A stretch of DNA of 35,609 nucleotides, from the NCBI GenBank assembly GCA_012518185.1, contig JAAYTA010000086.1, positions 1-35,609 of the forward strand, given 5' to 3'. The translations under genes and the position numbers were made by a program. Positions within the stretch are counted from its first letter, which is position 1; each line of letters begins with the position of its first letter. Below, in pieces: positions 1-17,645 of the stretch. The stretch is from Methanobacteriota archaeon (GTDB lineage Archaea > Thermoplasmatota > Thermoplasmata > Methanomassiliicoccales > Methanomassiliicoccaceae). The notes under the pieces were generated by a model. The model was given only the letters and a program-made list of their open reading frames with translations, did no database searches and was not told the origin of the DNA.

Positions 1-395
<395 letters not shown>

Positions 396-690
396 TTCGG
401 CTTGACAGTCAAACGAATTGCGTATGATCATCTTCCTTTTACCATTTCTATTATTGTTTAGCAACAATGCTTCAGGTGGAAGAGAATTGCTATAATTTAT
501 ACTATATTTACATCAGACTCTAATATCATAGCGTACGCTATCATCACTTATTATAGATCAAATTCTACGCTAAAATATCGAATGTTTTATTGATATTTCA
601 ATGATATTTCAATGATGTTTGCCAGTTATTATTATTCATCTGACTGGTTTTAGATAAGACTAAATAGGCGGATTAGCTACCGAAACATCG
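396..690. other. AT-rich intergenic region downstream of 23S rRNA
   Basis: No gene is visible here. The stretch contains T-rich runs that could end rRNA transcription, a perfect 14-bp palindrome (ATAGCGTACGCTAT, 528-541), and an 11-nt tandem repeat (about two and a half copies of a/ttgatatttca, 590-620). The promoter of the following operon should lie in its right half, but no single TATA element stands out. Confidence 0.5.
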
Positions 691-3043: not shown

Positions 3044-3958
3044 TCATTTAACATTATTTATCAATTGATCATAGAATGATAAAGTATCTTCAACAGTGTC
3101 TAGATTGAATGCTAGAATGTTGTTAGAGTGATAGACTATGATATGTGCTGAGACTTTATTATGCGACGCTAACGTATATGTTCCAAACTCCGCATTCTTG
3201 AATTTACCACTATTTATGTTGGTGCCTCCAAATCCTGCGATACGACGGCCAGTATCAAATTTATCTCTATACTCGACATTTGTAATGTCATCGTATGCGA
3301 TTAGTTCGTTGACCATTGACGCCTTGACTTGCAAGCTATCATCTTGAAGTTCGGCTGTCAAGTTGCCAGATGGAGCGATAAAAAATATTATGATGACTAC
3401 GATTGCAGTAATAATGATGGATATGCCCAATACGGCGTACAATATGCGGCGATTATCTTTTTTATCATCTTCTGTGATTAAGAGTTTGGGATCTATCGCT
3501 CCCTCTTTTAGAAATCGGCCCCCAGTGTTCATGTATATCATCCCTATGATGAGAATAGCCATGCTGACAGCGAGCAATATCCAGAATATCCACATGCCTT
3601 CAAGGAAAAAGATAGTCTCGATTGCTACTATCATAGGAATCATGCTGAAAAATAGCAGTTTCCCGATGAATTTAGCCAATTTTTCAGAATCATATTGATC
3701 CCGAACTGCTTTTGGAGACGTGTTATATCCAGCGATGAGTGATGCACCTTTTCCAGTGATCCACATATAGGCGGATAGGGCAATTATAGGTAAGATTGAG
3801 AATAGAAGTATACCCTGTACTACAATATCAATAATATCAGTCTCATTGGCTACGAGCAATGCAATAATAACGATTGGTGCCAGGAGTCCAATGATAACAG
3901 CTGATACGATAGCTTTGACATCCCTATCCATGATGAACCGGATGTAATACTGCTTCAT
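3044..3958 (-). CDS. Membrane protein with DUF3784-like segment and C-terminal PH-like domain
   Basis: A 304-aa integral membrane protein. Hydrophobic segments lie roughly at residues 17-38, 46-67, 100-117, 123-143 and 173-195. After the second helix is a GKGASLIAGYNT motif, which resembles the ‘KG..LIAGYNT’ signature of DUF3784 proteins of bacteria. The soluble tail (about 205-304: strand-rich, with AYDDITNVEY) resembles the bacterial PH domain of the bPH_5/PF10882 kind. Function is unknown. It stands alone on the minus strand, flanked by AT-rich gaps, and the first residues MKQYYIR follow a plausible ATG. The domain calls are from pattern recognition only. Confidence 0.7.
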   Translation of the reverse strand: MKQYYIRFIMDRDVKAIVSAVIIGLLAPIVIIALLVANETDIIDIVVQGILLFSILPIIALSAYMWITGKGASLIAGYNTSPKAVRDQYDSEKLAKFIGKLLFFSMIPMIVAIETIFFLEGMWIFWILLAVSMAILIIGMIYMNTGGRFLKEGAIDPKLLITEDDKKDNRRILYAVLGISIIITAIVVIIIFFIAPSGNLTAELQDDSLQVKASMVNELIAYDDITNVEYRDKFDTGRRIAGFGGTNINSGKFKNAEFGTYTLASHNKVSAHIIVYHSNNILAFNLDTVEDTLSFYDQLINNVK

Positions 3959-4247: not shown

Positions 4248-4886
4248 TTGAGGATTAGCTTGGAGAATATTATCTTTGTTCCGGATTTGAAAATCAATGA
4301 TAGCTTAAAAGTTGTCCTTGAGAACTATGAGGGAGTGAATACTGCCAGATGTACAAGGCAGGGTCGAATGATTTTAAGCGCGCTCAAGGGTTTATGTTTA
4401 GATGTGGAAAAGATCATAACTGAAAATTTTCCAGAAGCAGAGATACGGATGAACAATATGAGGCCGACTACTTTCTGGCCTGACGTTCCCTGGACAGTAT
4501 TTGATGGTTCATTTCGCCATATGACCGATCGCGGTCCTTTTTTGATCAACATGAGCTATCAGTTTGCAGCTGATATGTCAGGAGTATTCTTCGCCCTATC
4601 AGTTAACGCTGATGGATGGAGAGAACGCTTTGGTTCGGAGTGGCCGTCAAAGTTTGAGCCATTCAAGCTCAGACTCAGAGAAGACCTAGTATGGCTGAGA
4701 GATTATGGATTCCAGTTAGACGATGATGCGAATTTGATGAGCGATGATTCGTTTGCTGAAGATATGCAACATAGCTACATTGCTTACAAATTCTACTCTA
4801 TTGTAGAAATGCCATCGGAGAAAGAAATTCAACGTGATTTGGTGATTATATTCAAGGCACAGCAGCAACTGATTAGTAAGGAATAA
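4248..4886 (+). CDS. Orphan McrB N-terminal-like (DUF3578-type) protein
   Basis: A 212-aa soluble protein. The segment around residues 77-123 (W-x2-VPW, then a F-L-I-N-M-S-Y block and DMSGVFFALSVN) resembles the MrcB_N/DUF3578 domain, which in McrBC-type restriction proteins sits before the AAA+ GTPase and recognises DNA. No AAA+ or nuclease domain follows, so the domain stands alone. The start is a TTG at 4248: the ATG four bases upstream is out of frame and quickly stops, and an upstream in-frame TAG limits extension. It is followed by the tRNA-Leu gene and then an HNH nuclease, which suggests remnants or parts of a defence locus. The family call is moderate; the function is inferred. Confidence 0.6.
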   Translation: MRISLENIIFVPDLKINDSLKVVLENYEGVNTARCTRQGRMILSALKGLCLDVEKIITENFPEAEIRMNNMRPTTFWPDVPWTVFDGSFRHMTDRGPFLINMSYQFAADMSGVFFALSVNADGWRERFGSEWPSKFEPFKLRLREDLVWLRDYGFQLDDDANLMSDDSFAEDMQHSYIAYKFYSIVEMPSEKEIQRDLVIIFKAQQQLISKE

Positions 4887-5052
4887 TTGTGTCTAGTAAA
4901 TTTACTCCATGGATGATATATAATGGATTTAGTTGAATGATAGTAGTATTCATACTGATATGTGATGAATATGACAATGCTCTAACTAGAGAGTTTTAAG
5001 CTCTCGTGTGCTAACCTTTAATTAGGGATGTAGCTTTACGAAATCCCATCAC

Positions 5053-5159
5053 GCGAGGGTAGCCAAGCCAGGTCAATGATGATGTCCTCATCGGCCAAAG
5101 GCGACAGACTCAAGATCTGTTCCTGAAGAGGTTCGTGGGTTCAAATCCCTCCCCTCGCA
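5053..5159 (+). tRNA. tRNA-Leu (anticodon CAA) with a D-loop intron
   Basis: The acceptor stem is GCGAGGG 5053-5059 with CCCTCGC 5152-5158, discriminator A 5159, no encoded CCA. The D stem is GCC 5062-5064 with GGC 5100-5102. The anticodon arm is ACAGA-CTCAAGA-TCTGT (5104-5120), which puts CAA at 34-36. A long variable arm (CCT...AGG) marks it as class II, and the T loop is TTCAAAT (5140-5146). A 22-nt insertion at 5077-5098 interrupts the D loop; removing it restores the standard archaeal Leu D loop GGTCAAAGGCG. A TATA-like TTTAATTA at 5018-5025 lies at the expected distance upstream. Confidence 0.93.
5077..5098 (+). other. 22-nt tRNA intron in the D loop, with a bulge-helix-bulge motif
   Basis: The precursor folds into a canonical bulge-helix-bulge for the archaeal tRNA splicing endonuclease. 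The 4-bp central helix is GGTC 5071-5074 with GGCC 5093-5096. The two 3-nt bulges are AAT (5075-5077) and AAA (5097-5099). The intron-side helix is GATGA 5078-5082 with TCATC 5088-5092, closing a 5-nt loop. GCC 5067-5069 can pair with GGC 5100-5102 as the outer helix, next to one unpaired A. Cleavage after the second base of each bulge gives exactly 5077-5098 as intron. Confidence 0.85.
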
Positions 5160-5316: not shown

Positions 5317-6318
5317 ATGATGCATTCACCAGAGCCAGAGAATTACTGGAGGGGTGTAATACTATTCGGAAGAAATTCCTCAACATACAAGATGGCACTT
5401 GGTAAATTACTTCTCGGTTACAGCTACAGTGGCTTAGATAGAATTTCTCTCGACGATCTCGCATCAGATTTCCTATCACTATATATTGAGCGAACGGAAA
5501 ATAATCATCCGCAGCAGGGAGTCATGGGAAGGAAAACTATAGTAGAGCATCAAATAGATCTAATACGCCATGGAGATAGGTCATTTGATTCTGCAGTTGA
5601 AGTAGTTAAGGCACAGGCTCTTTCTAATATGGTATTAGTGAAATTCAACAATCTATTTGGTACAAAAATTTCCAAACCATTCTATTCATTTACACCAGGG
5701 GATAGCGAGATCACTCTAAATGCCAATTTACTCCGACTATCCGATTCGAAAATAGAGAAGAACTCTCTGGAGTCGGAAATCCTTGGACGGTGGGATTTAC
5801 TTGAGCATGCCTATGAACGAACGCGCATAGCTCCCCTTTCAGTAGATGAACGAATGGAATATCTAATTAATGCAGAGGATAGAAAAGTCCTAACTCCGCT
5901 CATTCCAATGATTGAGGGATATCAGCAGGGGCGGTGTTTCTACTGTGGAAGGCCACTATATGACATACATGTTGATCATGTCATCCCCTTTTCTGCCATC
6001 CATCATAACGACGTTTGGAATTTAGTTCTCGCTCATGCCGAATGCAACGAACAGAAATCTGATAGCATTCCATCTAAACTATTCATTGATAGATTGATAT
6101 TAAGAAATGAGTATTATATTTCTAGTTCTCATCCGCTCAAGGATGAAATCATCCGAAAGACTGGGAACTCGTCCAGTATGCGGAAAAATGAAATATATAG
6201 GCAATATCGAGATGCTTATCAATATAAGGGGCGTTTCTGGCGAGGAGATCCTAGCTATAATCCCGAAGAAGATAAAGAATTCATTTATTGGATAGAATAT
6301 TATGCTCCAAAAATATGA
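5317..6318 (+). CDS. HNH endonuclease domain protein
   Basis: A 333-aa protein. The N-terminal half (WRGVILFGRNSSTYKMALGK at about 11-30 and a helical body to about 190) is not a domain I can name. An HNH nuclease follows at about 205-250: C207-x2-C210, the HVDH core (H218-D220-H221) with VIPF, N231/N235, and H240-x2-C243-N in place of the usual C-x2-C second knuckle. Such proteins cut DNA (or RNA) with a beta-beta-alpha-metal site. Either ATG (5317 or 5320) could be the start. It overlaps the following NTP-pyrophosphatase gene by 17 nt, so the two are probably translated together. The pairing and the position next to a tRNA suggest a mobile or defence cassette, which is inference. Confidence 0.8.
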   Translation: MMHSPEPENYWRGVILFGRNSSTYKMALGKLLLGYSYSGLDRISLDDLASDFLSLYIERTENNHPQQGVMGRKTIVEHQIDLIRHGDRSFDSAVEVVKAQALSNMVLVKFNNLFGTKISKPFYSFTPGDSEITLNANLLRLSDSKIEKNSLESEILGRWDLLEHAYERTRIAPLSVDERMEYLINAEDRKVLTPLIPMIEGYQQGRCFYCGRPLYDIHVDHVIPFSAIHHNDVWNLVLAHAECNEQKSDSIPSKLFIDRLILRNEYYISSSHPLKDEIIRKTGNSSSMRKNEIYRQYRDAYQYKGRFWRGDPSYNPEEDKEFIYWIEYYAPKI

Positions 6319-16082: not shown

Positions 16083-17645
16083 TTAAGTATATTCGTCTCC
16101 TTTGGTCTTCCTCCATTCATCGAGAGGGATTGAGAACTTTTTCTCAACTTCATCACGATAGGTGGGGCCACCGTTGTATGCGCAGAAGGGTATAATCCTA
16201 CCATCTGGCACAACGTAATGAATAGCACAGCGCTTGACCCTTTCGACGTCGAAGTTATAAGCATCTTGGAAATGCATGGAACTAATCAGCATCATGTTCC
16301 ATGAGAATTTAGCTAAACCTGATTTTGTTTCATTGTTGACTACGTTTCCCATAGTCTCAACGAATTGAGAAACGGTAAGTCCACTGGGTATTTTGCTCTC
16401 ATCAATATGTTTCTTTAGGATCTTACGAGCCTTAATCAGGGAGAGTTTAGGGAATGTTGCCGATGTAGCTTCTTTAGATAATTCATATATGTCCTTCATC
16501 AGCCCTTCCACGTCGACAAACTGTGTTAATGGCACTACTTCATCATCATCGTTGATGAACCAGTATGTTCCCATCCCACAATGTGGATGAGTGGTGAAGG
16601 CCACTTTATATTGTTTAAGGATGGCAGATGCATAGGTGGATATAGGTACTACAGAAGGTACAGGGAACCAATCATCTCTACCGGCATATCCTGTCTGTTC
16701 ATCAATATCTCTTATTAGATCAGGGATAGTATATCTTCCCTCTTCTCTCTCTTTCTGATCTATACGTCCAGTGAATGCTACGGGCTGGAAGTTAACGGCC
16801 CGTACTACATCACGATTCTTAACTGCGAATTTTATAATGTCTCCTATCTGATGATCGTTAAGTCCTTTGACCACTGTGGGGACTAGAACTATTGAGGGTC
16901 GCTTGTATGTGAGCTTTCGAACATTCTCGATGGCATCATTCTTAACATCCATCAATTTCTTGCCTCGTGTCTGTTCATAAATGTCATCAGTTATGCCGTC
17001 GAATTGCAGATAGATAGTATTGACACCTGCTTCAGCACACTCTCTAGCAAAATCAGGATCTCTGGCAAGTTTTATTCCATTTGTGGCCACTTGAATTTGA
17101 GCGAATCCCAACTCCTTAGCCTTACGGATAACGTCGAAGAATCTGGGATAGATAGTAGGTTCACCACCAGAAAATTGGATGGCAGGGGTGGGAACTGGGC
17201 GCTCTTCCCTCAACTTCTCCATCATGAACACTACTTCTTCGAAAGATGGTTCATATACGTATCCAGCTTGATTGGCGTTGGCAAAACATATCGGGCAACG
17301 AAGATTACATCGATTGGTCAAGTCAAGGTTAGCTAATGATGTATGTGATGTGTGTAAATTGCATAGTCCACAGTTATCTGGACATGTTTTGGCGTCGGTA
17401 ATTAATGGATTGCTTATGCCGATACCATCGTATGCATACTTTTCGGCCTTTAGGAATAAATCCACATCTGACCAATATATATCTGTGATCTTACCATGCT
17501 CTGGACATTCCTTTTCCATGAGCACTTTACCATCCGATTCGAATACTCGTGCTGGCACTACCTTCTTACACTCTGGGCAAAGTGACTGCGTTGTTTTGGG
17601 CAGTCCTTTCTGTAGAACGCTATCTTTCGCTATCATAAGAGCCAT
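16083..17645 (-). CDS. tes: Radical SAM tetraether lipid synthase (Tes)
   Basis: A 520-aa radical SAM enzyme of the Tes family (MA_1486/MJ0619 group), which couples the phytanyl chain ends of two archaeols to give macrocyclic or tetraether lipids. The N-terminal part carries extra Cys sets (C23/C26/C47 and C88/C92/C95 in CPDNCGLC). The SAM cluster motif CNLRCPIC is C113-C117-C120 and SGGEP is at 159-163. Two more Cys are in PHCGMG and two in the C-terminal CAIHY...IPFCAYN region, matching the multi-cluster architecture of Tes. Either ATG 17645 or ATG 17636 may start it. It heads an operon with ferredoxin and geranylgeranyl reductase, the order known in Methanosarcina, and is divergent from a TrmB-type regulator. 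Confidence 0.92.
   Translation of the reverse strand: MALMIAKDSVLQKGLPKTTQSLCPECKKVVPARVFESDGKVLMEKECPEHGKITDIYWSDVDLFLKAEKYAYDGIGISNPLITDAKTCPDNCGLCNLHTSHTSLANLDLTNRCNLRCPICFANANQAGYVYEPSFEEVVFMMEKLREERPVPTPAIQFSGGEPTIYPRFFDVIRKAKELGFAQIQVATNGIKLARDPDFARECAEAGVNTIYLQFDGITDDIYEQTRGKKLMDVKNDAIENVRKLTYKRPSIVLVPTVVKGLNDHQIGDIIKFAVKNRDVVRAVNFQPVAFTGRIDQKEREEGRYTIPDLIRDIDEQTGYAGRDDWFPVPSVVPISTYASAILKQYKVAFTTHPHCGMGTYWFINDDDEVVPLTQFVDVEGLMKDIYELSKEATSATFPKLSLIKARKILKKHIDESKIPSGLTVSQFVETMGNVVNNETKSGLAKFSWNMMLISSMHFQDAYNFDVERVKRCAIHYVVPDGRIIPFCAYNGGPTYRDEVEKKFSIPLDEWRKTKGDEYT

What the first reader, a model, noticed from the sequence alone, without database searches (positions are those of the whole stretch)
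5053..5159. tRNA-Leu(CAA) with a 22-nt intron in the D loop and a textbook bulge-helix-bulge
The D loop is interrupted at 5077-5098. The precursor forms a 4-bp helix (5071-5074/5093-5096) flanked by two 3-nt bulges, with a 5-bp intron-side hairpin, and cutting after the second base of each bulge restores the normal D loop exactly. Most archaeal tRNA introns sit at 37/38; introns elsewhere are known mainly from Thermoproteota, so a D-loop intron in a probable euryarchaeote is notable. Standard scanners may mis-call or miss this tRNA. It also implies an endonuclease form able to cut non-canonical sites.
Basis: partly seen in the sequence, partly recalled or inferred. Interest (0 to 1): 0.7.

Follow-up and report, generated by a model that had tools for sequence, protein, structure and literature searches.

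The report
Leucine tRNA gene with D-loop intron
A methane-making archaeon interrupts its only leucine-tRNA(CAA) gene with a 22-letter intron at an unusual place, relatives across its order keep that intron and two similar ones in other tRNAs, and an ordinary narrow-specificity cutting enzyme appears to remove them, which goes against the textbook rule for this branch of archaea.

Summary
Window 5053-5159 is a tRNA-Leu(CAA) gene with a 22-nt intron at 5077-5098 (position 21/22) and a bulge-helix-bulge (BHB). ARAGORN finds it only after in-silico splicing. It is the only Leu(CAA) gene found in this 96%-complete genome. The organism is a Methanomassiliicoccales archaeon, in the genus of RumEn M1. 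The intron occurs in 24 genomes (9 genera, 4 families) of the order. All 22 distinct versions keep a 4-bp central helix, two 3-nt bulges and a 4-8-bp intron helix with compensatory changes; 33 genomes carry the exact intronless allele. The same genome and much of its order have two more non-canonical-site introns: tRNA-Thr(CGT) D-loop, and tRNA-Arg(TCT) T-loop beside a 37/38 intron. The motif is nearly strict; only its position is unusual. Other archaea with an intron at this site mostly have weak intron helices. Reviews held that alpha4/alpha2 Euryarchaeota have only 37/38 introns; this order is a clear exception. Splicing itself is inferred, not observed.

The parts
5017..5024 (+). TATA-box-like element TTTAATTA, about 30 nt upstream of the tRNA 5' end
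   Evidence: An A/T-rich TTTAATTA/TTTATTAA/TTTAATA element recurs at this spacing upstream of nearly all homologous tRNA-Leu(CAA) genes in the order, with and without intron
5053..5076 (+). tRNA-Leu(CAA) exon 1: acceptor 5' strand, D stem 5' strand, most of the D loop (to A21)
   Evidence: Cloverleaf after in-silico splicing; identity to intronless genes
5077..5098 (+). 22-nt intron at position 21/22
   Evidence: BHB in the single-sequence fold and in the 24-sequence consensus fold with covariation; shuffling test
5099..5159 (+). tRNA-Leu(CAA) exon 2: D stem 3' strand, anticodon arm (CAA), variable arm, T arm, acceptor 3' strand, A73
5071..5074 (+). central helix of the BHB, exon strand GGUC (pairs with 5093-5096)
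   Evidence: 4 of 4 pairs in all 22 distinct introns
5093..5096 (+). central helix of the BHB, intron strand GGCC (GACC or GAUC in relatives)
5075..5077 (+). 5' bulge AAU; predicted cut after 5076
   Evidence: 3 nt in all 22 distinct introns
5097..5099 (+). 3' bulge AAA; predicted cut after 5098
   Evidence: 3 nt in all 22 distinct introns
5078..5092 (+). intron-side hairpin h' (GAUGA / UCAUC, loop UGUCC)
   Evidence: compensatory changes at three of its five pairs
5067..5069 (+). D-loop GCC that pairs with GGC 5100-5102 in the precursor as the exon-side outer helix; in the mature tRNA GGC pairs with GCC 5062-5064 (D stem)
   Evidence: MFE and consensus folds; pairs kept in all 24 genomes (one of them C-G or U-G)

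Best explanation
This is the functional, single-copy tRNA-Leu(CAA) gene of a Methanomassiliicoccales archaeon, interrupted at position 21/22 by a 22-nt protein-spliced archaeal intron. In the transcript the intron pairs with the exon stretch GGUC to make a bulge-helix-bulge; the 3' strand of the D stem (GGC) pairs meanwhile with a second GCC in the D loop as the outer helix. The cell's only splicing endonuclease found, an ordinary euryarchaeal alpha'2 homodimer, should cut after the second base of each 3-nt bulge, and RtcB should join the halves, whereupon GGC re-pairs with the true D stem. Shown: gene, motif, conservation, covariation, single copy, endonuclease type by sequence, presence of RtcB. 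Inferred: transcription, cutting, ligation, charging. It belongs to a clade-wide set of non-canonical-site introns in this order, with a tRNA-Thr(CGT) D-loop intron and a tRNA-Arg(TCT) T-loop intron.
For: Exact boundaries restore the intronless allele of relatives. 24 genomes in 9 genera and 4 families keep the intron, with 4/4 central pairs, 3-nt bulges and h' of 4-8 bp in all 22 distinct versions although loop sequence and length vary (22-28 nt). RNAalifold gives the BHB as consensus with both-sides changes at three h' pairs. Conserved TATA-like element. No second Leu(CAA) in the genome; the other four Leu isoacceptors are single and distinct. EndA alpha'2 and RtcB present. Thr and Arg introns have 4-bp central helices and 3-nt bulges by the same reading.
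Against: No RNA data: no spliced read or circular intron was seen. The exon-side outer helix has one unpaired base (A5070; A, U or C in relatives) opposite the 3' bulge, so the Leu motif is not a perfect hBHBh'; whether an alpha'2 enzyme tolerates this was not tested. This copy has a U-U mismatch in the T stem, as does the Leu(UAA) gene of the same genome. The assembly is a draft in 139 contigs (about 96% complete), so an intact second copy on a missing contig cannot be fully excluded.
Confidence: 0.92

Rival explanations
1. The gene is a decaying pseudogene or carries an insertion that is never removed; UUG codons are read by tRNA-Leu(UAA) through wobble.
For: Leu(UAA) exists in the genome; this copy has a T-stem U-U mismatch.
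Against: The insertion lies at the same position in 24 genomes of 9 genera with compensatory changes and an otherwise near-invariant tRNA body; a conserved TATA-like element; no second Leu(CAA) found.
Confidence: 0.03
2. The intron is spliced, but by a broad-specificity activity (a second endonuclease subunit or an accessory factor) rather than by the alpha'2 EndA alone, because the exon-side outer helix is offset by one unpaired base (an HBh'-like relaxed site).
For: A5070 or its equivalent is unpaired in every relative; a review lists alpha'2 EndA as narrow and A. fulgidus EndA is said to require strict 3-nt bulges.
Against: The two matches to PF01974 in the genome lie in one gene. Bulges are 3 nt and h' at least 4 bp in all 22 distinct introns, as expected if a strict enzyme selects them, whereas archaea outside the class at the same site have h' of at least 4 bp in 3 of 17. 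The Arg(TCT) T-loop intron has a fully strict hBHBh'. Homodimeric enzymes are also reported to cut relaxed BHL-like motifs and, in full-length pre-tRNA at 37/38, BHL motifs.
Confidence: 0.1
3. The intron is spliced as proposed and is also kept for a role, for example delaying D-loop modification or blocking integrases or nucleases that target the intact tRNA sequence. (Compatible with the best explanation.)
For: Persistence across four families; position in the D loop next to the tertiary-contact bases.
Against: Absence in whole sister families and in most of the f3 family, so it is dispensable; the loop sequence is unconstrained. No direct evidence.
Confidence: 0.1

Closest known systems
Archaeal non-canonical-position tRNA introns (Thermoproteales, Nanoarchaeota, Thaumarchaeota, ARMAN, Korarchaeum; PMC4090602, PMC4033280, PMC8450103)
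   Same: Short BHB intron in the D or T loop, predicted to be removed by the PF01974 endonuclease; more than one intron in one tRNA.
   Different: There the enzyme is (alpha-beta)2 or epsilon2 (or a Korarchaeal alpha2 with the specific loop) and sites are often relaxed; here it is an alpha'2 enzyme with no such loop and the motifs are strict or nearly so.
Euryarchaeal 37/38 tRNA introns cut by alpha'2 EndA (Archaeoglobus, Haloferax, Thermoplasma, Ferroplasma)
   Same: Same endonuclease architecture, same strict BHB logic, 3-nt bulges and 4-bp helix.
   Different: Position: D loop (21/22) or T loop instead of one base 3' of the anticodon.
D-loop introns at the same tRNA-Leu site in Bathyarchaeota, Brockarchaeota, Asgard lineages, Aenigmarchaeota
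   Same: Same insertion site after GGUCAA, a central helix of 4 pairs in nearly all and a similar AAA or UAA 3' bulge.
   Different: The intron-side helix is mostly 0-3 bp, against 4-8 bp in this order.

Membership tests
Archaeal BHB tRNA intron | 4-bp central helix | tested here: met
   4/4 pairs in 22 of 22 distinct introns
Archaeal BHB tRNA intron | two 3-nt bulges holding the splice sites | tested here: met
Archaeal BHB tRNA intron | intron-side helix h' of at least 2 Watson-Crick pairs (definition in PMC7714728) | tested here: met
   5 bp in the window, 4-8 bp in relatives
Archaeal BHB tRNA intron | exon-side helix h directly closing the 3' bulge (strict hBHBh') | tested here: inconclusive
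   3 bp GCC/GGC present but separated by one unpaired base (A5070) opposite the bulge
Archaeal BHB tRNA intron | removal restores a normal cloverleaf | tested here: met
   ARAGORN calls tRNA-Leu(CAA) only on the spliced sequence; the junction equals the intronless allele
Archaeal BHB tRNA intron | observed excision and exon ligation | not testable with these tools
   no RNA data; EndA and RtcB genes present
Canonical (37/38) tRNA intron | insertion one base 3' of the anticodon | tested here: not met
   intron at 21/22
alpha'2-type EndA | one gene with two fused PF01974 units, C-terminal unit catalytic (Tyr, His, Lys) | tested here: met
   351 aa, two PF01974 matches in one frame; aligns with A. 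fulgidus 1R0V/2GJW over residues 62-338; Y/H/K columns conserved in relatives
Broad-specificity EndA ((alpha-beta)2 with CSL, or epsilon2 with ASL) | separate alpha and beta genes, or a three-unit protomer, with a lysine-bearing specificity loop | tested here: not met
   single two-unit gene; no insertion at the CSL site in the window genome or in the relatives aligned

The most novel reading that the evidence does not exclude
Methanomassiliicoccales have evolved, and lost piecemeal, a set of D-loop and T-loop tRNA introns under an unmodified alpha'2 endonuclease. What limits intron position in Euryarchaeota is then motif quality rather than endonuclease type, and tRNA-Leu 21/22 is a recurrent entry site across archaeal phyla because its exon (GCC-N-GGUCAA...GGC) already supplies most of a BHB.
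Probability: 0.55. Interest if true: 0.6.

Novelty: new member of a known kind. Interest (0 to 1): 0.45.

Why it matters
Reviews state that Euryarchaeota with alpha4 or alpha2 endonucleases carry only single, canonical 37/38 introns (PMC4090602), and that Korarchaeum was the only archaeon with an alpha2 enzyme and non-canonical tRNA introns (PMC4033280). A euryarchaeal order with three tRNAs interrupted at non-canonical sites, one of them doubly, and a plain alpha'2 enzyme makes the endonuclease-intron coevolution model directly testable: strict motif, any position. It also shows why such tRNAs can look missing or mis-called in annotations of these methanogens.

Tried and rejected
A special endonuclease: rejected. 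A second Leu(CAA) copy: none found. Chance pairing: rejected by shuffling and covariation. Mobile-element origin: nothing found inside the 22 nt; the flanking HNH and MrcB_N genes are not beside this tRNA in relatives while the intron is, so they are unrelated to it. Some hits of the all-archaea pattern (e.g. L083, L084, L085, L087, L100, L104, L107) are intronless tRNAs with a chance GGTCAA upstream and were discarded by eye; the same holds for G027 and G244. Marck and Grosjean 2003 and Tocchini-Valentini 2011 were not held. Two calls of the count of structure pairs failed on input; pair counts come.

Full report
Observation. Window 5053-5159 reads as a tRNA-Leu(CAA) gene interrupted by 22 nt, 5077-5098. 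ARAGORN finds no tRNA in the window, mis-calls tRNA-Met(CAT) in its intron mode, and calls tRNA-Leu(CAA) once the 22 nt are removed in silico. The Rfam tRNA model gives only a partial match, 19.6 bits against a cut-off of 29. The minimum-energy fold of the 107-nt precursor, without guidance, is (((.((((...(((((.....)))))))))...))) in the D region: a 4-bp helix, two 3-nt bulges, a 5-bp intron hairpin and a 3-bp outer helix. All first-reader coordinates are right. The outer helix is not perfectly stacked: A5070 is unpaired.

A detail of the fold. The outer helix uses GCC 5067-5069 in the D loop, not the real D-stem strand GCC 5062-5064, to pair with GGC 5100-5102. The precursor thus pairs GGC with the neighbouring GCC repeat, and splicing would let it return to the D stem. 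This is a prediction from the single-sequence and consensus folds. One of the three pairs is C-G in 18 and U-G in 6 genomes.

Organism. The genome (1.60 Mb, 139 contigs, 95.7% complete) belongs to Methanomassiliicoccales.

Conservation. Of 147 genomes of the order, 24 have the intron (families f1, f3, f4, f6; nine genera; a 25th pattern match, G027, is an intronless tRNA with a chance upstream match) and 33 have the exact intronless allele GGTCAAAGGCG (f2, f5, most of f3). The remaining 90 match neither strict pattern. Apart from the false match no genome has both. Among 22 distinct introns the central helix is 4/4 in all, both bulges are 3 nt, and h' is 4-8 bp with free variation of the loop; the shuffled expectation for 4-bp plus at least 5-bp is 0.003 introns, observed 19. 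RNAalifold on 24 sequences returns the BHB with changes on both sides at three h' pairs. A TATA-like TTTAATTA lies about 30 nt upstream in nearly all homologues. Outside the order, one of about 300 other sampled genomes of the class has such an intron (G179, the same sequence as L093).

Single copy. The genome's other Leu tRNAs are UAA, CAG, UAG and GAG; no second CAA was found.

Not alone. In the same genome the tRNA-Arg(TCT) gene (L144) has a 37/38 intron and a 22-nt T-loop intron with a fully strict motif: TCGGG | TTCG | AA^A | CCTCC..GGAGG | CGAA | AT^T | CCCGA, which restores the T loop TTCGAAT. tRNA-Thr(CGT) has a D-loop insertion with GCGG/TCGC pairing; its exact splice points are less certain, because a 2|3 cut of both bulges leaves a 9-nt D loop against 7 nt in intronless f2 relatives. 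Both are widespread in the order. Arg occurs as T-loop intron plus 37/38, T-loop only (f5, several f2), 37/38 only (f3 genus g6) or neither (two f2 genomes read), so introns turn over one at a time.

Endonuclease. One PF01974 gene, 351 aa, two units. It aligns to A. fulgidus alpha'2 EndA and to the M. kandleri chain 5x89; the C-terminal unit keeps the Tyr, His and Lys columns, and the CSL position has no insertion, in the window genome and in the relatives aligned. 60 of 61 relatives give matches, nearly all as two domains in one frame, whether or not they have the intron. RtcB ligase is present. The special-enzyme inference is therefore dropped. A. fulgidus EndA is described as needing a strict 3-nt bulge (PMC12397907), which fits the strictness seen here. 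Naming the Tyr/His/Lys columns and the CSL site rests on PMC6379350 and on the alignment to the A. fulgidus chains, one of which (3p1y) carries a 10-residue insert at that site.

Comparison across archaea. A scan of 84,980 species for a Leu tRNA with an insert at this site found introns also in Bathyarchaeota, Brockarchaeota, several Asgard lineages, Aenigmarchaeota and others. There the central helix is nearly always 4 bp but h' reaches 4 bp in 3 of 17, against 22 of 22 here (Fisher p 5e-8, not corrected for relatedness; L066 and L096 do not fit the register and L093, which belongs to the class, was set aside). The endonuclease types of those lineages were not tested here.

Literature. PMC4090602 says tRNA genes of Euryarchaeota have one BHB intron at the canonical position; PMC4033280 names Korarchaeum as the only alpha2 archaeon with non-canonical introns, and M. 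kandleri and M. thermautotrophicus as the euryarchaea with multi-intron tRNAs. tRNAscan-SE 2.0 (PMC8450103) trained a BHB model on curated introns of Crenarchaeota and Euryarchaeota, so some euryarchaeal cases were known to its authors. The 2014 comparative genomics paper of the order (PMC4153887) does not mention tRNA introns. No paper in the library on tRNA introns of this order was found; GtRNAdb could not be consulted, so priority is uncertain.

Verdict. A real, well-supported archaeal tRNA intron of a known kind, at an unexpected place for its enzyme type and clade. Splicing is inferred.

Noticed in passing
L144:60-179 (G000:C75, own genome): tRNA-Arg(TCT) with two introns: one at 37/38 and a 22-nt T-loop intron with a fully strict BHB; missed by ARAGORN and scored 17.4 bits by Rfam. 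The T-loop intron is widespread in the order.
   Followed up: yes
L046:1501-1604 (G000:C68:65191-65291): tRNA-Thr(CGT) with a D-loop intron, called Arg(TCG) by ARAGORN; the intron recurs in f1, f3, f5 and f6 of the order and is absent in the f2 genomes read.
   Followed up: partly
window 5136 and 5150; L002: tRNA-Leu(CAA) and tRNA-Leu(UAA) of this genome share the same T arm with a U-U mismatch (GTGGG...CCCTC), unlike relatives' Leu(CAA); possibly gene conversion between the two genes.
   Followed up: no
window 4248-4886 and 5317-6318: An MrcB_N-domain protein and an HNH protein (HNH region resembling Cas9/IscB/PtuB) flank the tRNA here but not within about 1.5 kb of it in relatives, while the upstream DUF3784 gene (3044-3958) is kept beside the tRNA in the genus: a possible accessory or defence insertion next to a tRNA gene.
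   Followed up: partly
window 1-396: 3' end of the 23S rRNA gene at the contig edge.
   Followed up: no
window 16083-17645: Match above cut-off to tetraether lipid synthase Tes (NF045702, 682 bits).
   Followed up: no
L068, L073: tRNA-Leu(TAA) of Methanosarcinales- and Methanocellales-labelled MAGs seems to carry a longer D-loop insertion with a strong hairpin: possibly further euryarchaeal D-loop introns.
   Followed up: no
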